From Variovorax sp. PAMC26660 (GTDB lineage: Bacteria; Pseudomonadota; Gammaproteobacteria; Burkholderiales; Burkholderiaceae_C), in NCBI RefSeq assembly GCF_014302995.1, contig NZ_CP060295.1:3525501-3589500 (forward strand): 64,000 nucleotides of DNA, in the 5' to 3' direction. Within the stretch, counting starts at the first letter, position 1, and each line of letters begins with the position of its first letter. A program made the position numbers and the translations under genes. The notes under the pieces are model-generated. The model saw nothing but the letters and a program-made list of their open reading frames with translations, ran no database searches and was not told where the DNA came from. Shown piece after piece: positions 39,978-45,310 of this stretch.

Positions 39978-41438
39978 ATGATCTCTCGCGAACCCACCAT
40001 CGAGCGCCTCGCCACGGCGCAACAGCTCCTGCTCACGCCGTTCGGCCTTGACGAATCGCACTTGAGCAAAGCCCTGGCCGAGATCACCTCGCACCGGGTG
40101 GACGACGCCGATCTGTACTTCCAGTACACGCGCAGCGAAGGCTGGAGCCTCGAAGAGGGCATCGTCAAGACCGGCAGCTTCAGCATCGACCAGGGCGTCG
40201 GGGTGCGCGCGGTCAGCGGCGAGAAAACCGCTTTCGCCTATTCGGACGATATTTCCGAGGCTTCGCTGCTCGACGCGGCGCGCACGGTGCGCTCCATTTC
40301 CTCCGCAGGCCGCACCGGCCGCGTGAAGACGCCGACCCGCAAGATCGCATCGAGCCGCTCGCTGTACGACGGCATCGACCCCATTTCCACGCTCGACAGC
40401 ACCACCAAGGTGAAGCTGCTCGAAAAGGTCGAGAAGCTGGCCCGCTCGCGCGATCCGCGCGTGGCGCAGGTCATGGCGGGCCTGGCGAGCGAGTACGACG
40501 TGGTGCTCGTGGCGCGCGCCGACGGCACGCTGGCCGCCGACGTGCGGCCGCTGGTGCGCCTGTCGGTCACTGTCATTGCCGAGCAGAACGGCCGCCGCGA
40601 GATCGGTTCGGGCGGTGGCGGCGGGCGCTTCGGCCTGGCCTATTTCACTGACGAGCAGATCGCCGAGTATGTCGACCATGCCGTGAAAGCGGCGCTCACC
40701 AACCTCGACGCCCGCCCGGCGCCGGCCGGCGAGATGACCGTGGTGCTCGGTTCCGGCTGGCCCGGCATCCTGCTGCACGAAGCCATCGGCCACGGGCTCG
40801 AAGGCGACTTCAACCGCAAGGGCTCGAGCGCCTTCGCCGGCCGCATCGGCCAGCGCGTGGCGGCCAAGGGCGTGACGGTGCTCGACGACGGCACGATCGC
40901 CGACCGCCGGGGCTCGCTCAATGTCGACGACGAGGGCAACGCCAGCCAGCGCAACGTGCTGATCGAGGACGGCATCCTTAAGGGCTACATCCAGGATTCG
41001 CTCAATGCGCGCCTCATGAAGGTCAAGCCCACGGGCAATGGCCGCCGCGAGAGCTACGCCCACGTGCCGATGCCGCGCATGACCAACACCTACATGCTGG
41101 GCGGCGACAAGGACCCGAAGGAAATCGTGGCCAGCATCAAGAAGGGGCTGTACGCCACCAACTTCGGCGGCGGGCAGGTCGACATCACGAGCGGCAAGTT
41201 CGTGTTCTCGGCGAGCGAGGCCTATTGGGTCGAGAACGGCAAGATCCAGTACCCGGTCAAGGGCGCGACCATCGTGGGCAACGGTCCCGATGCGCTGACC
41301 CGCGTGACCATGATCGGCAACGACATGGCGCTCGATTCGGGCGTCGGCACCTGCGGCAAGGAAGGCCAGAGCGTGCCTGTGGGCGTCGGCCAGCCGACCC
41401 TGCGCATCGACGGCTTGACAGTAGGTGGAACGGCTTAG
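39978..41438 (+). CDS. tldD: Metalloprotease TldD
   Basis: TldD with TldE (PmbA) forms a zinc metalloprotease that processes small peptides. The 486-aa product has the zinc-binding H267-E-A-I-G-H motif (HExxxH) within LLHEAIGHGLEGDFNRKGSSAF, the upstream VDDADLYFQYTRSEGWSLEEG, and the late GGGQVDITSGKFVFSASEAYWVENGK. Length matches E. coli TldD (481). pmbA/tldE is not in the window. It stands alone between rodA and a lipoprotein gene. Confidence 0.96.
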   Translation: MISREPTIERLATAQQLLLTPFGLDESHLSKALAEITSHRVDDADLYFQYTRSEGWSLEEGIVKTGSFSIDQGVGVRAVSGEKTAFAYSDDISEASLLDAARTVRSISSAGRTGRVKTPTRKIASSRSLYDGIDPISTLDSTTKVKLLEKVEKLARSRDPRVAQVMAGLASEYDVVLVARADGTLAADVRPLVRLSVTVIAEQNGRREIGSGGGGGRFGLAYFTDEQIAEYVDHAVKAALTNLDARPAPAGEMTVVLGSGWPGILLHEAIGHGLEGDFNRKGSSAFAGRIGQRVAAKGVTVLDDGTIADRRGSLNVDDEGNASQRNVLIEDGILKGYIQDSLNARLMKVKPTGNGRRESYAHVPMPRMTNTYMLGGDKDPKEIVASIKKGLYATNFGGGQVDITSGKFVFSASEAYWVENGKIQYPVKGATIVGNGPDALTRVTMIGNDMALDSGVGTCGKEGQSVPVGVGQPTLRIDGLTVGGTA

Positions 41439-41519
41439 GACTTTCGTCACTTGCCGATTGTTTCCTTCGGTTGCTAAGCTGCGCTCCTTTTGCGAATGAC
41501 GAATTCAAGGAGCATTTCA

Positions 41520-42059
41520 ATGGGGAACAGGATCAATTCGCCCGCCGTGCTGTGGGCCGTGACCGCCGTGGTGGCGCTGGCCACCGCCGGTTGTGCGTCC
41601 CGCGGCGGTTCGGGCAGCCAACCCCAGGCCGCGCCTGCGCCCGCGGCGGCCGCTCCAGCGGCGCCCGCGCGCAGCGGTTCCGGCGCCGGCATGGATGGCC
41701 GAGGCAACGTGACCGATTCCTCCAAGGTCGAAGCCGGCAGCGGCCGCACCGTCAAGGGCCTGAACGGCTACGAAGGCGAGATCACCGGCAACCCCGCGCG
41801 CAACAGCAAGTTCACGCGCCTGCAGATCGGCATGAGCGCCAGGCAGGTCACCGACCTTGCCGGCCAGCCGACCGACCAGGGGGCCTACATCACCGGCAAG
41901 GCCTTCATTCCGTTCTACTTCGGCAGCGACCGCCACCGTTTCGAGATGACCTACAAGGGCCAGGGGCGGCTGATTTTCGCGGGTGGCGGCATGGGTGATT
42001 TCTCCAGCGGCAACCTGATCTGGATCATCCACAACGCCAACGAGTCGGGCTACCGATAA
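41520..42059 (+). CDS. Small BamE/SmpA-like lipoprotein
   Basis: A 179-aa predicted lipoprotein: signal peptide with lipobox ATAGC, followed by an Ala/Pro/Ser-rich linker (about 30-65), then a domain with LQIGMSARQVTDLAGQPTDQG that resembles the helix-turn of BamE/SmpA-type folds (L-x-x-G-M-x-x-x-Q-V-x-x-L-x-G-x-P). The rest is short beta strands. AAGGAG at 41507-41512 supports ATG 41520; an upstream ATG 30 bp earlier would push the signal peptide inwards. The resemblance is by pattern only. Confidence 0.8.
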   Translation: MGNRINSPAVLWAVTAVVALATAGCASRGGSGSQPQAAPAPAAAAPAAPARSGSGAGMDGRGNVTDSSKVEAGSGRTVKGLNGYEGEITGNPARNSKFTRLQIGMSARQVTDLAGQPTDQGAYITGKAFIPFYFGSDRHRFEMTYKGQGRLIFAGGGMGDFSSGNLIWIIHNANESGYR

Positions 42060-42068
42060 GCAACGCAG

Positions 42069-42098
42069 AGCCTGGTCGCTTGACTGGGCTTTTGTTTT
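42069..42098 (+). terminator. Terminator of the BamE-like lipoprotein gene
   Basis: AGCCTGGTC (42069-42077) pairs fully, counting two G-T wobbles, with GACTGGGCT (42082-42090) around a GCTT loop, followed by TTTGTTTT. It overlaps the -35 element of the aroG leader promoter, so termination and the next promoter share DNA. Confidence 0.65.
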
Positions 42099-42110
42099 CC
42101 GTGCTACATT
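42080..42110 (+). promoter_or_regulatory. Candidate promoter of the aroG leader
   Basis: TTGACT (42080-42085) and TACATT (42105-42110) preceded by TGC (extended -10) lie 19 bp apart. Transcription would begin near 42117, only about two bases before the leader-peptide ATG. The spacing is long but the extended -10 compensates. Start site is inferred. Confidence 0.5.
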
Positions 42111-42118
42111 CCGCCCAC

Positions 42119-42193
42119 ATGTCCGCCCTCCGCGCTTATTTCTTTGCCTACTTTTGGTTCCCGGTTTCCGGCGGACGAGAGGCGAGCGCGTAA
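42119..42193 (+). CDS. Aromatic leader peptide of the aroG attenuator
   Basis: A 24-codon reading frame from ATG 42119 to TAA 42191-42193. Residues 7-14 are Y-F-F-A-Y-F-W-F: seven aromatic residues in eight positions, covering Phe, Tyr and Trp, the three products that depend on DAHP synthase. No Shine-Dalgarno separates the candidate -10 element from the ATG, so translation may be leaderless. It lies directly upstream of an alternative hairpin set and a terminator. Ribosome stalling at these codons when aromatic amino acids run short would control read-through into aroG. Confidence 0.85.
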   Translation: MSALRAYFFAYFWFPVSGGREASA

Positions 42194-42223
42194 AGCAAAC
42201 GAACACCCTCCCAGAACCGCCGG
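42121..42223 (+). promoter_or_regulatory. Attenuator protector and antiterminator pairings (segments 1, 2, 3)
   Basis: Segment 1 GTCCGCC (42121-42127) is complementary to segment 2 GGCGGAC (42170-42176). Segment 2 also offers CCGGCGG (42168-42174), which is complementary to segment 3 CCGCCGG (42217-42223), the 5' arm of the terminator. Pairing 1:2 leaves the terminator free to form; pairing 2:3, favoured when a ribosome stalls on the aromatic codons and covers segment 1, blocks it. This is the layout of the classical trp-type attenuator. Confidence 0.8.
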
Positions 42224-42248
42224 CGCATCCAGCCCCGGCGGTTTTTTT
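42215..42248 (+). terminator. Attenuator terminator upstream of aroG
   Basis: AACCGCCGG (42215-42223) pairs perfectly with CCGGCGGTT (42235-42243) around an 11-nt loop, followed by a run of seven T (42242-42248). It lies between the leader-peptide stop and the aroG start (42286), so it can only act on the aroG transcript. Confidence 0.9.
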
Positions 42249-42285
42249 ATGCCCTGACGATATCCACTCCAACAAGGAAGCACCC

Positions 42286-43404
42286 ATGAGCACGAACACT
42301 GCCCCCGCCAGCGACAGCTGGTATGCGAGCGTCGAAAAAACCAGCAAGACCGACGACGAACGCATCAAGGACATCAACGTGCTGCCCCCTCCCGAACATC
42401 TGATCCGCTTTTTCCCGATCCGCGGCACAGCCATCGAAACGCTGATCGAAGGCACCCGCCGCAACATCCACAACATCATGGCCGGCAAGGATGACCGGCT
42501 GCTGGTGATCATGGGGCCCTGCTCGATCCACGACCCGGCGGCTGCCGTCGAATACGCCAAGCGCCTGAAGGTCGAGCGCGAAAAGTACGCCGGCACGCTG
42601 GAGATCGTGATGCGGGTGTACTTCGAGAAGCCGCGCACCACCGTCGGCTGGAAGGGCCTGATCAACGACCCGTACCTCGACGAGAGCTTCCGCATCGACG
42701 AAGGTCTGCGCATCGCGCGTCAGTTGCTGATCGACATCAACCGCATCGGCCTGCCGGCGGGCAGCGAGTTCCTCGACGTGATCTCGCCCCAGTACATCGG
42801 CGACCTGATCGCCTGGGGCGCCATCGGCGCGCGCACCACCGAAAGCCAGGTGCACCGCGAGCTGGCCTCGGGCCTGTCGGCACCCATCGGCTTCAAGAAC
42901 GGCACCGATGGCAACATTCGCATTGCGACCGACGCCATCCAGGCAGCGGCCCGTGGTCACCATTTCCTGTCGGTGCACAAGAACGGCCAGGTCGCCATCG
43001 TGCAGACCAATGGCAACCGCGACTGCCACGTGATCCTGCGCGGCGGCAAGGCGCCGAACTACGACGCTGCCAGCGTCGAAGCCGCCTGCAAGGACCTCGA
43101 AGCTGCCAAGCTGCCGCCCACGCTGATGGTCGACTGCAGCCACGCCAACAGCTCCAAGCAACACCAGAAGCAGATCGACGTGGCCAAGGACATCGCGGGC
43201 CAGATTGCCAGCGGCTCGAACCGCGTGTTCGGCGTGATGGTCGAGAGCCACCTGCAGGCCGGCGCCCAGAAGTTCACGCCGGGCAAGGACCAGCTTTCGG
43301 ACCTCGAATACGGCAAGAGCATCACCGATGCCTGCATCGGCTGGGACGATTCGGTGCAGGTGCTGGAGACGCTGTCGCAGGCCGTCAAGCAACGCCGCGG
43401 TTAA
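42286..43404 (+). CDS. aroG: 3-deoxy-7-phosphoheptulonate synthase (DAHP synthase, type I)
   Basis: This enzyme condenses phosphoenolpyruvate and erythrose 4-phosphate, the entry step to aromatic amino acids. The 372-aa product has VIMGPCSIHDPAAA, the PEP/E4P-binding FEKPRTTVGWKGLINDP, SEFLDVISPQYIGD, GFKNGTDGN, and VDCSHANSSKQ, all of the AroFGH family. AAGGAAG precedes ATG 42286. The leader region upstream suggests control by aromatic-tRNA supply rather than only by feedback inhibition. The leader contains Phe, Tyr and Trp codons, so the sequence does not reveal which amino acid inhibits the enzyme. Confidence 0.95.
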   Translation: MSTNTAPASDSWYASVEKTSKTDDERIKDINVLPPPEHLIRFFPIRGTAIETLIEGTRRNIHNIMAGKDDRLLVIMGPCSIHDPAAAVEYAKRLKVEREKYAGTLEIVMRVYFEKPRTTVGWKGLINDPYLDESFRIDEGLRIARQLLIDINRIGLPAGSEFLDVISPQYIGDLIAWGAIGARTTESQVHRELASGLSAPIGFKNGTDGNIRIATDAIQAAARGHHFLSVHKNGQVAIVQTNGNRDCHVILRGGKAPNYDAASVEAACKDLEAAKLPPTLMVDCSHANSSKQHQKQIDVAKDIAGQIASGSNRVFGVMVESHLQAGAQKFTPGKDQLSDLEYGKSITDACIGWDDSVQVLETLSQAVKQRRG

Positions 43405-43910
43405 AGCATCCCGGCCAGCTCGGGCCAGTGGTGCCGCATCGACGCAGCCTCGTCGCTGTCGGGTGGCACCAGCGAGAAGTCGGCGAAGTCGAAGCCCGGG
43501 CCGACCATGCAGGCGACCAGCGTGTAGTCGCCTGCTGTGTGGCCCTGGATCGGCCGGGCCGCCTGCCACTGCCCGGCCGGCACCACGTGCTGGGGACGGG
43601 TGCCGTGGGCATCGACCGGGCCCAGCCGCGTGTGGGCTGGCGCTGTGCGCATCGCGGCATCGCAGGTCCAGAGCGCCAGCGGCACGCCTTCCAGGTGCAC
43701 CCAGACTTCATCGGACAGCACCCGGTGCCAGCGCGAATGCTGGCCCGCTTCAAGCAGGAAGTAGATGCTGGTCAGGGCATTGCGGGGCGGGCGGCCGTCG
43801 GCGGGCGTCACGCTCGCGGCCGAACGGAATACCTCGCTGTACCAGCCGCCCTCGGGATGGGGCTGCAGTTTCAGGGTGTCGATCAGCTCGCGGGCGCGCA
43901 TGGCGGTCAT
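43401..43910 (-). CDS. Cupin_5 (DUF985) family protein
   Basis: A 169-aa single-domain cupin of the DUF985 type. LQPHPEGGWYSEVFRS near the N-terminus, TSIYFLLEAGQHSRWHRVLSDEVWVHLEG (with the metal-type His pattern), and FSLVPPDSDEAA with a late HHWPEL fit the family. Members have been linked to sugar or small-molecule binding, but no activity can be assigned here. Its ATG overlaps the mpl stop (ATGA), so it is translated after mpl. Its C-terminus overlaps the aroG stop by four bases on the other strand. Confidence 0.8.
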   Translation of the reverse strand: MTAMRARELIDTLKLQPHPEGGWYSEVFRSAASVTPADGRPPRNALTSIYFLLEAGQHSRWHRVLSDEVWVHLEGVPLALWTCDAAMRTAPAHTRLGPVDAHGTRPQHVVPAGQWQAARPIQGHTAGDYTLVACMVGPGFDFADFSLVPPDSDEAASMRHHWPELAGML

Positions 43911-45310
43911 GATGCCGCCCTCGCTCGGAGGGCGGCAAGCAGTTTGTCGTGCACGCCGCCAAAGCCGCCATTGCTCATGCATACGATGTGATCGCCCGGC
44001 CGGGCGGCCGCCACGATCTGCGCCAGCAGCGGCTCGATGGCGCCTGCCACCTGCGCGCGGTCGCCCATCGGGGCCAGCGCCGCGGCGGCATCCCAGTCGA
44101 GGCCGGCCGTGTGGCAGAACGACAGGTCGGCGGATTCCAGGCTCCACGGCAACTGCGCCGCCATCACGCCCAGTTTCATCGTGTTGCTGCGCGGCTCGAA
44201 GGCCGCGAGGATGCGCTCACTTTGCTTGCCGGCATCGTCGAGTTTCTTGCGCAGGCCATCGAGCGTGGTGCGAATGGCGGTCGGGTGGTGGGCGAAGTCG
44301 TCATAGACCGTGATCGCGCCGCCGCTGCGCTCGACCGCGCCGCGCAGTTCCATGCGCCGCCGCACATTGCGGAAGCTGCCGAGTGCGCGGGCCGCATCGG
44401 CCGGCGCAACGCCCACATGCTCGGCCGCCGCGATGGCTGCCAACGCATTCATCTGGTTGTGCAGGCCCGAAAGCGCCCATTCGACGCGGCCGACCGGCTC
44501 GCCCCGGTGCAGCACATCGAAAGCGTCGTGCGATCCGCGTGCCTGCCACTCACCGCCCGCGCCGAAACGCGCGAGCTCGCTCCAGCAGCCCTGGGCCAGC
44601 ACGCGCTGCAGGCTTTCTTCGGTGGCGTTCACCACCAAGCGTCCGGTGCTCGGCACGGTGCGTACGAGGTGGTGGAACTGGCGTTCGATGGCAGCGAGAT
44701 CGTCGAAGATGTCCGCGTGGTCGAACTCCAGGTTGTTCAGCACGGCCGTGCGCGGACGGTAGTGCACGAACTTGCTGCGCTTGTCGAAGAAGGCGGTGTC
44801 GTATTCATCGGCTTCGATCACGAAGGCCGCGCCACCGCCCAGCCGGGCCGAGACGCCAAAGTCGAGCGGCACGCCGCCGACCAGGAAGCCCGGCGCCTTG
44901 CCTCCTTGCTCAAGCACCCAGGCCAGCATCGATGTGGTGGTCGTCTTGCCGTGCGTGCCGGCCACGGCGAGCACGTGGCGGCCCAGCAGCACGTGCTCGG
45001 CCAGCCACTGTGGGCCGCTGGTGTAGGGCTTGCCGGCATCCAGGATGGCTTCCATCAGTGGGAACTTGGGGCGCCCATCGGGCAAGCGCGCCCGAGACAC
45101 CACGTTGCCGACCACGAACACGTCGGGCGAAAGTGCAAGCTGATCGGCGCCGAAACCCTCGACCAGGTCGATGCCGAGGGCGCGCAACTGGTCGCTCATC
45201 GGCGGGTACACGCCGGCATCGCAGCCCGTGACCCGGTGGCCTGCCTCGCGCGCCAGGGCGGCCAGTCCGCCCATGAACGTGCCGCAGATACCCAGAATAT
45301 GAATGTGCAT
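43907..45310 (-). CDS. mpl: UDP-N-acetylmuramate:L-alanyl-gamma-D-glutamyl-meso-DAP ligase Mpl
   Basis: Mpl recycles murein tripeptide by ligating it to UDP-MurNAc, bypassing MurC-MurD-MurE. The 467-aa product resembles MurC but has the Mpl-type N-terminus MHIHILGICGTFMGGLAALA, the P-loop [33 protein letters not shown] (Mpl-specific), and VYDDFAHHPTAIRTTL. Together with ampD in this window it supports active peptidoglycan recycling. The cupin gene overlaps its stop. Confidence 0.95.
   Translation of the reverse strand: MHIHILGICGTFMGGLAALAREAGHRVTGCDAGVYPPMSDQLRALGIDLVEGFGADQLALSPDVFVVGNVVSRARLPDGRPKFPLMEAILDAGKPYTSGPQWLAEHVLLGRHVLAVAGTHGKTTTTSMLAWVLEQGGKAPGFLVGGVPLDFGVSARLGGGAAFVIEADEYDTAFFDKRSKFVHYRPRTAVLNNLEFDHADIFDDLAAIERQFHHLVRTVPSTGRLVVNATEESLQRVLAQGCWSELARFGAGGEWQARGSHDAFDVLHRGEPVGRVEWALSGLHNQMNALAAIAAAEHVGVAPADAARALGSFRNVRRRMELRGAVERSGGAITVYDDFAHHPTAIRTTLDGLRKKLDDAGKQSERILAAFEPRSNTMKLGVMAAQLPWSLESADLSFCHTAGLDWDAAAALAPMGDRAQVAGAIEPLLAQIVAAARPGDHIVCMSNGGFGGVHDKLLAALRARAAS

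What the first reader, a model, noticed from the sequence alone, without database searches (positions are those of the whole stretch)
42105..42250. Complete aromatic-amino-acid transcription attenuator upstream of aroG
Seen: a 24-codon frame (42119-42193) with residues Y-F-F-A-Y-F-W-F; segment 1 GTCCGCC (42121-42127) complementary to segment 2 GGCGGAC (42170-42176); segment 2 CCGGCGG (42168-42174) complementary to CCGCCGG (42217-42223); and a 9-bp terminator with seven T (42215-42248). The three pairings exclude each other exactly as in trp-type attenuation. The stalled ribosome would cover segment 1, free segment 2, and block the terminator. Known: E. coli aroG is controlled by TyrR, and I do not recall a named attenuator of a DAHP synthase gene in Burkholderiales. 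A leader sensing Phe, Tyr and Trp together would match the common entry enzyme.
Basis: partly seen in the sequence, partly recalled or inferred. Interest (0 to 1): 0.88.

Follow-up and report, generated by a model that had tools for sequence, protein, structure and literature searches.

The report
Aromatic amino acid attenuator of aroG
A short start-of-message RNA switch, built from a tiny peptide gene rich in phenylalanine, tyrosine and tryptophan codons, most likely turns on the entry enzyme of aromatic amino acid synthesis when those amino acids run short, and a like switch stands before the same gene in many other Proteobacteria.

Summary
A 24-codon leader (MSALRAYFFAYFWFPVSGGREASA, 42119-42193) precedes a terminator (42215-42248) and aroG (42286-43404) in a Variovorax-like genome. 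It is the only such aromatic-rich short frame in the window. The interpretation, ribosome-mediated transcription attenuation, is strongly supported by comparison. Leader plus terminator occur in 74 of 82 loci examined and before aroG in other proteobacterial families, including another class. Segments 2, 3 and 4 co-vary. Segment 2 is kept as RNA in all three reading frames. A folding model allows antitermination while the ribosome sits on the aromatic codons and not beyond. Two amendments. The leader mRNA appears leaderless: an extended -10 box lies 6-8 nt before the ATG in 72 of 74. Attenuation, a leader peptide ahead of DAHP synthase (C. glutamicum aroR) and a leaderless leader (S. meliloti trpL) are all known. 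No Rfam family matches, and ten paper searches did not show this aroG family. No function was tested at the bench.

The parts
42102..42110 (+). Predicted extended -10 promoter element TGC-TACATT; start of transcription expected at about the A of the leader ATG (8 nt between box and ATG)
   Evidence: same kind of element with 6-8 nt spacing in 72 of 74 loci, 1 of 887 shifted control windows. Inferred, no transcript data.
42119..42193 (+). Leader peptide ORF MSALRAYFFAYFWFPVSGGREASA, probably leaderless (no Shine-Dalgarno)
   Evidence: unique in the window
42137..42160 (+). Control codons Tyr-Phe-Phe-Ala-Tyr-Phe-Trp-Phe
42157..42164 (+). Proposed segment 1 (GUUCCCGG), overlapping the Trp/Phe codons; pairs with 42168-42176
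   Evidence: MFE fold; UUCUC/GAGAG helix at the like place in relatives paired in 92.9% of cells of A1
42168..42182 (+). Segment 2 (CCGGCGG, then GAGAGG)
42207..42223 (+). Segment 3: CCUC plus AACCGCCGG; pairs with segment 2 (antiterminator) or segment 4 (terminator)
   Evidence: the CCUC:GAGG extension was seen by eye, not counted
42235..42248 (+). Segment 4 CCGGCGG and the T run: 3' half of the intrinsic terminator
42274..42278 (+). Shine-Dalgarno-like AAGGA of aroG
   Evidence: Sequence
42286..43404 (+). aroG, class I DAHP synthase (372 aa)
   Evidence: TIGR00034 above cut-off; PF00793

Best explanation
A ribosome-mediated transcription attenuator controls aroG. RNA polymerase starts at or next to the leader ATG, and a ribosome loads on the 5'-terminal AUG (inferred). 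With enough charged Phe-, Tyr- and Trp-tRNA the ribosome runs through to the stop codon and covers or passes segment 2; segment 3 then pairs with segment 4, and transcription ends before aroG. When a charged aromatic tRNA is scarce, the ribosome stalls in the aromatic run, disrupts the 1:2 hairpin (GUUCCCGG with CCGGCGGAC in the window), and leaves segment 2 free to pair with segment 3. The terminator cannot form and aroG is transcribed. Shown here: anatomy, conservation, co-variation, RNA-level rather than peptide-level conservation of segment 2, and consistency with a folding model. Inferred: start site, stalling, read-through and the response to amino acids.
For: Leader plus terminator in 74 of 82 loci. 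Of the other 8, L002 is the window genome's second DAHP synthase, L023 has almost no upstream sequence, and L028 has the leader without a recognisable terminator. Mean 6.8 F/W/Y per leader over 73 rows. Segment 2 core is read in frames 0 (60) and 2 (12) of 72 parsed rows of A1, and in frames 0, 2 and 1 (12, 50, 6) of 68 rows of A2. 3:4 pairing on 68 order-wide leaders: 42 cells changed on both sides, 0 of 500 shuffles as high; 2:3: 21 cells, 2 of 500. One position of segments 2/3/4 is T/A/T in 22 and C/G/C in 18 of 68 rows. Folding model, 73 leaders: mean P(2:3) 0.95-0.97 with the A site 24 to 15 nt before the segment 2 core, 0.72 at 12 nt, 0.03 at 9 nt where no residue is aromatic, 0.00 at the stop codon; window: 0.97-1.00 at codons 7-13, 0.80 at Phe14, 0.01 at Pro15, 0.00 without a ribosome. 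The contrast between stall and stop codon holds for footprints of 12, 15 and 18 nt. aroG beside the element in 79 of 90 examined R1 loci of the order, the window included, and in 20 of 22 further loci.
Against: No transcript, reporter or ribosome data. Shuffle controls do not correct for phylogeny. The number of pairs with a double change is not above shuffles (361 of 500 as high for 2:3, 109 of 500 for 3:4), so the signal rests on few columns; at the most variable 2:3 position only 44 of 68 rows are Watson-Crick. Mean P(2:3) without a ribosome is 0.275 (median 0.041), and non-aromatic codons before the run also score 0.73-0.79. 290 of 399 genomes of the order gave no R2 match at 1e-5, and three of the 109 that did (G074, G117, G308) have it before another gene. 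Four Polynucleobacter loci and one Cupriavidus locus have this aroG without the leader. The apposed -10 box is not evident in several families.
Confidence: 0.9

Rival explanations
1. The terminator simply ends upstream transcription and the aromatic frame is a chance frame; aroG has its own downstream promoter.
For: Intergenic terminators are common. A separate terminator-like hairpin at 42067-42092 already follows the upstream gene.
Against: Conserved aromatic run with both synonymous codons in use, co-varying segments, and conserved spacing of promoter box and ORF. A promoter for aroG alone would have to lie within about 37 nt between terminator and start codon.
Confidence: 0.03
2. The leader is an attenuator, but its main signal is Phe (and Tyr) only; the Trp codon is incidental or only slows the ribosome.
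For: Phe codons dominate (318 F, 108 Y, 70 W in A1; 313 F, 131 Y, 31 W in A2). 38 of 68 order-wide leaders have no Trp. In C. glutamicum aroR, Phe limitation acts and Tyr availability does not (review PMC11802643, passages).
Against: 67 of 73 leaders of A1 have Trp, placed where the model gives the highest P(2:3): mean 0.98 over 70 Trp codons against 0.92 for Tyr and 0.90 for Phe.
Confidence: 0.4
3. The released leader RNA or peptide also acts in trans, as rnTrpL/peTrpL does in Sinorhizobium.
For: Same probable leaderless layout as S. meliloti trpL, whose products act in trans (PMC7298713, passages).
Against: The peptide after the aromatic run is not conserved: segment 2 is read in different frames. 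No target was sought.
Confidence: 0.1

Closest known systems
Corynebacterium glutamicum aroR attenuator upstream of aroF (Neshat et al. 2014, not read; seen in passages of PMC11802643 and PMC4046766)
   Same: Leader peptide with aromatic codons (F-Y-F) before a DAHP synthase gene; ribosome stalling said to enhance transcription under Phe limitation
   Different: Different phylum; shorter aromatic run without Trp as described; sequence homology with the present leader was not tested
Sinorhizobium meliloti trpL / rnTrpL attenuator of trpE(G) (PMC7298713, PMC10117765, passages)
   Same: Leaderless leader ORF beginning at the transcript's 5' end; transcription attenuation
   Different: Controls trpE(G) through Trp codons; has reported trans functions, none known here
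Escherichia coli trp and pheA leaders (review PMC11802643, passages; architecture recalled)
   Same: Segment 1/2/3/4 logic, control codons near segment 1, terminator before the gene
   Different: Leaders with Shine-Dalgarno sequences (recalled); control trpE or pheA, while E. coli aroG is under TyrR (recalled)
Predicted attenuators before aroAI-alpha_Y > tyrA in two Vibrio species (Table 7 of PMC1173090, from Merino's database, passages)
   Same: Predicted attenuator ahead of a DAHP synthase gene in Proteobacteria
   Different: Different gene pair and lineage; no leader peptide described in the passages seen

Membership tests
Ribosome-mediated transcription attenuator (trp/phe/his type) | Short leader ORF with codons for the product of the controlled pathway | tested here: met
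   7 aromatic of 8 consecutive codons in the window; 74 of 82 loci have such an ORF with the terminator
Ribosome-mediated transcription attenuator (trp/phe/his type) | Intrinsic terminator between leader and gene | tested here: met
   42215-42248; 3:4 helix 99.6% paired in A1, co-varying in A2
Ribosome-mediated transcription attenuator (trp/phe/his type) | Antiterminator that excludes the terminator | tested here: met
   2:3 pairing 90.8% of cells, 21 doubly changed cells, 2 of 500 shuffles as high
Ribosome-mediated transcription attenuator (trp/phe/his type) | 1:2 hairpin disrupted by the stalled ribosome | tested here: inconclusive
   92.9% of cells paired in A1, but the helix is short, was not counted in A2, and the window itself uses a shifted variant
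Ribosome-mediated transcription attenuator (trp/phe/his type) | Read-through rises on starvation for the cognate amino acid | not testable with these tools
   Needs RNA or reporter measurements; only a folding model was run
Rfam leader families (any) | Match at the family's gathering score | tested here: not met
   No match at gathering score in the window region 40000-44500 nor in 7 loci from different lineages
C. glutamicum aroR | Common descent with aroR | not tested
   No Corynebacterium sequence was compared
S. meliloti trpL-like leaderless leader | Transcript begins at the leader AUG | tested here: inconclusive
   Extended -10 box 6-8 nt before ATG in 72 of 74 against 1 of 887 shifted windows; Shine-Dalgarno-like match in 1 of 74; several other families lack the pattern; no 5' end data

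The most novel reading that the evidence does not exclude
This is an example of an undescribed 'aroG leader' family of Proteobacteria: a leaderless, RNA-only device, ancestral or carried along with aroG, in which one ribosome reads Phe, Tyr and (in some lineages) Trp codons as an OR gate and sets entry into the shikimate pathway where the TyrR/TrpR repressors of enterobacteria are missing.
Probability: 0.45. Interest if true: 0.7.

Novelty: new member of a known kind. Interest (0 to 1): 0.55.

Why it matters
The first committed step of aromatic synthesis has textbook control by TyrR in enterobacteria. A comparative study reports TrpR and TyrR as conserved in many gammaproteobacteria but absent in other classes (PMC5343134, passages), and no match to the TrpR family was found in the window's genome (TyrR was not tested). 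A conserved attenuator before aroG would fill that gap. It would offer a natural test of how one leader combines two or three tRNA signals, add a probably leaderless attenuator family beside rhizobial trpL, and be a target for relieving control in aromatic-compound production. It also supplies covariance models for a family that Rfam lacks.

Tried and rejected
A 7-nt complement occurs in 3 of 73 leaders, 6 nt in 3, 5 nt in 7, 3-4 nt in 60. Against my own choice: the Trp/Phe stretch gives 5 nt in 2, 4 nt in 57, 3 nt in 14, so length alone does not separate the two. My choice rests on the local MFE hairpin and on the 92.9% of paired cells.

RNAalifold on A1 found only the terminator; the structures were therefore named by hand and counted.

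Eleven of 90 examined R1 loci have no aroG nearby (R1 E 0.0018-0.0095). By eye most are bare terminators, and one (L156) overlaps a tRNA-like sequence. One (L157) proved to be a leucine-rich leader before an acetyltransferase-like gene and leuA. In the class search, weak matches (E 2e-5 and above) were not counted as members; many are terminator-only, and the three full-length weak ones looked at (L183, L184, L189) have no aroG. 90 of the 114 match rows were examined; 24 were not.

Of the 79 order loci with aroG, a strict pattern found the leader in 62. A second scan showed a leader with at least 4 of 9 aromatic codons in 11 of the other 17. Six (L131, L142, L151, L162, L163, L164) were not parsed cleanly, and some of these look poor in aromatic codons. 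One search found no terminator for L100, L116, L140 and L162 among the order loci. Dropped before A2: those four; L086 (near copy of the window); L120, L131, L142, L151, L164 (misparsed); and L083 (the window again). From the 83 candidates left 15 were thinned by hand and the ends of L105 were shortened by hand, leaving 68 rows. L059 was left out of A1, and L028 had no terminator.

The AroG tree (52 of 53 rows; L123 dropped as short) does not decide between vertical inheritance and transfer.

A first count of the extended -10 box as 73 of 74 mixed two tallies; recounted as 72 of 74. The exceptions are L049 (9 nt) and L044 (start codon probably misplaced).

Full report
Observation. The sequence at 42119-42248 is as described. 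The frame codes MSALRAYFFAYFWFPVSGGREASA, segments 2, 3 and 4 are in place, and a seven-T run follows. Among ATG-started frames of 10-45 codons on both strands of the 64-kb window it is the only one with five or more aromatic residues in nine. Downstream is a class I DAHP synthase (TIGR00034, PF00793). Upstream are a 179-aa frame with no Pfam or NCBIfam match at 0.001 and a PmbA/TldD protein. The genome has 7.39 Mb in one contig. The nearest named relatives by AroG are Variovorax records, 97% and 95% identical.

Conservation near the window. With the window's own copy and its second DAHP synthase, 82 loci were scanned, and 74 have an aromatic-rich ATG frame followed by the terminator. Without it: the paralogue L002, L023 (almost no upstream sequence), L028 (leader without a recognisable terminator), four Polynucleobacter loci (L066, L068, L072, L074) and Cupriavidus L082. 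In an alignment of 73 leaders (A1) the aromatic run, the GGCGG core, GAGAGG and the terminator stand out.

Leaderless start. In 72 of 74 leaders an extended -10 box (mostly TGnTACATT) ends 6-8 nt before the leader ATG; the same test on windows shifted 30-140 nt upstream scored 1 of 887. Only 1 of 74 has a Shine-Dalgarno-like match. Transcription should therefore begin at or next to the AUG. S. meliloti trpL is a documented leaderless leader (PMC7298713 and PMC10117765, passages). This is an inference from sequence. In the order-wide set the same kind of box was found in f1, f4, f23, f40 and part of f44; f13 has a box without the TG; it was not evident in f3, f8, f32, f11 or f20, and in f10 only weakly. 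In several of the nine loci from another class GTGACA, 17 nt, TATATG stands 6-7 nt before the ATG (read by eye).

Three structures. In A1 the terminator helix pairs in 99.6% of cells. A helix UUCUC/GAGAG, whose 5' side lies on the codons next to the conserved Trp codon, pairs in 92.9%. Its counterpart in the window is GUUCCCGG (42157-42164) with CCGG-C-GGAC (42168-42176) in the minimum-energy fold. In 68 leaders from across the order (A2) the 2:3 helix pairs in 90.8% of cells with 21 cells changed on both sides (2 of 500 shuffles as high; slid partners at most 14). The 3:4 helix pairs in 91.2% with 42 such cells (0 of 500; slid partners at most 10). The number of pairs with a double change is not above shuffles (361 and 109 of 500). 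At one position the triple of segments 2/3/4 is T/A/T in 22 rows and C/G/C in 18. Of 68 rows, 40 are Watson-Crick in both pairings, 44 in 2:3 and 63 in 3:4. The shuffles do not account for relatedness.

RNA, not peptide. The GGCGG core of segment 2 sits in frame 0 in 60 and frame 2 in 12 of 72 parsed A1 leaders, and in frames 0, 2 and 1 in 12, 50 and 6 of 68 A2 leaders, giving peptides such as PGGRE, PLAEG or PRRxx from the same RNA. Aromatic positions, in contrast, are kept as amino acids with both synonymous codons in use (TTT 204, TTC 114; TAC 64, TAT 44 in A1). That is the pattern expected of an attenuator: the run is read by the ribosome, the rest by base pairing.

Folding model. For each leader the RNA downstream of a ribosome (3' edge at P site + 15) up to the end of segment 3 was folded, and the chance of 2:3 pairing computed (73 leaders). 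The mean is 0.73-0.79 near the start of the frame, 0.95-0.97 with the A site 24 to 15 nt before the segment 2 core (the last aromatic codons), 0.72 at 12 nt, 0.03 at 9 nt where no residue is aromatic, and 0.00 at the stop codon. Without a ribosome the mean is 0.275 and the median 0.041. The window gives 0.00 without a ribosome, 0.97-1.00 at codons 7-13, 0.80 at Phe14 and 0.01 at Pro15. Early non-aromatic codons also score high, so the model shows that stalls beyond the run would not work; it does not show that stalls before it would fail. Footprints of 12 and 18 nt keep the contrast between the best aromatic stall (0.98-0.99) and the stop codon (0.00); with 12 nt the value two codons past the run is 0.40-0.46 (72 and 68 leaders).

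Distribution. Model R1 (A1) matched 110 of 399 genomes of the order at E <= 0.01, in 62 of 158 genera; R2 (A2) matched 109 of 399 at 1e-5, 59 of 158 genera. Of 90 examined R1 loci (of 114 match rows), 79 have aroG beside the element; the strict leader pattern held in 62 of the 79. Not every R2 match is an aroG leader: G117 (L217), G074 (L218) and G308 (L157) have other genes, and the partial matches in G013 and G265 were not examined. In the class search (369 genomes) the four strong full-length matches outside the order (G410, G562, G670, G671) all precede aroG, 60-65% identical. In family f63, 15 of 60 genomes match; nine further loci from it all have aroG. In the phylum search (299 genomes, 34 matches at 1e-5) 16 genomes of three families outside the class match (f253, f256, f260), and all nine of these 16 that were fetched (L207-L215) have aroG downstream. 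E-values of the models are rough. The AroG tree groups the f63, f68 and other-class proteins with Burkholderiales family f4 and one f30 row (97/90), which fits transfer of aroG with its leader or an old origin. Leader-free Polynucleobacter rows sit beside leader-bearing ones (93/82), which points to loss.

Signals sensed. In A1, 65 of 73 leaders have all three aromatics; in A2, 28 of 68. So three-way sensing is plausible in the window's relatives, and Phe/Tyr sensing in many others. In C. glutamicum aroR a review says that Phe limitation acts and Tyr availability does not (PMC11802643, passages), a warning against reading codons as equal signals.

Known or new. No Rfam family matches at gathering score. 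Ten searches of an open-access library listed no paper that, from its listing, or from passages in the seven papers that I opened, describes an aroG leader attenuator in Alpha-, Beta- or Gammaproteobacteria. Subscription papers are mostly missing, supplements were not available, and Vitreschak et al. 2004 was not held. Prior art seen: aroR in C. glutamicum and predicted attenuators before aroAI-alpha_Y > tyrA in two Vibrio species (PMC1173090, Table 7). A survey of premature terminators does not mention aroG or aroF in its main text (PMC2965389, word search). Hence the mechanism is known, the gene-mechanism pair is known in another phylum, and the family reported here appears undescribed as far as these searches reach.

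Verdict.

Noticed in passing
   Followed up: partly
   Followed up: partly
L028 around 1876-2010: Ramlibacter MAG with an intact leader but no recognisable terminator and with the start of aroG missing; a deletion or a misassembly.
   Followed up: no
L014 1839-1967: A record named Solimonas (Nevskiaceae) carries a Comamonadaceae-like aroG with leader and terminator: transfer or contamination.
   Followed up: no
L002; G000:C1:3674000-3675049: The window's genome has a second DAHP synthase, 58% identical, with no aromatic leader or terminator pattern upstream.
   Followed up: partly
42067-42092: Terminator-like hairpin just after the upstream gene; it overlaps the place where a -35 element of the leader promoter could lie (TTGACT, 19 nt before the -10 box).
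   Followed up: no
L169 and L170 (both from G301): Two contigs of one genome carry very similar leader-aroG loci: duplication or strain mixture.
   Followed up: no
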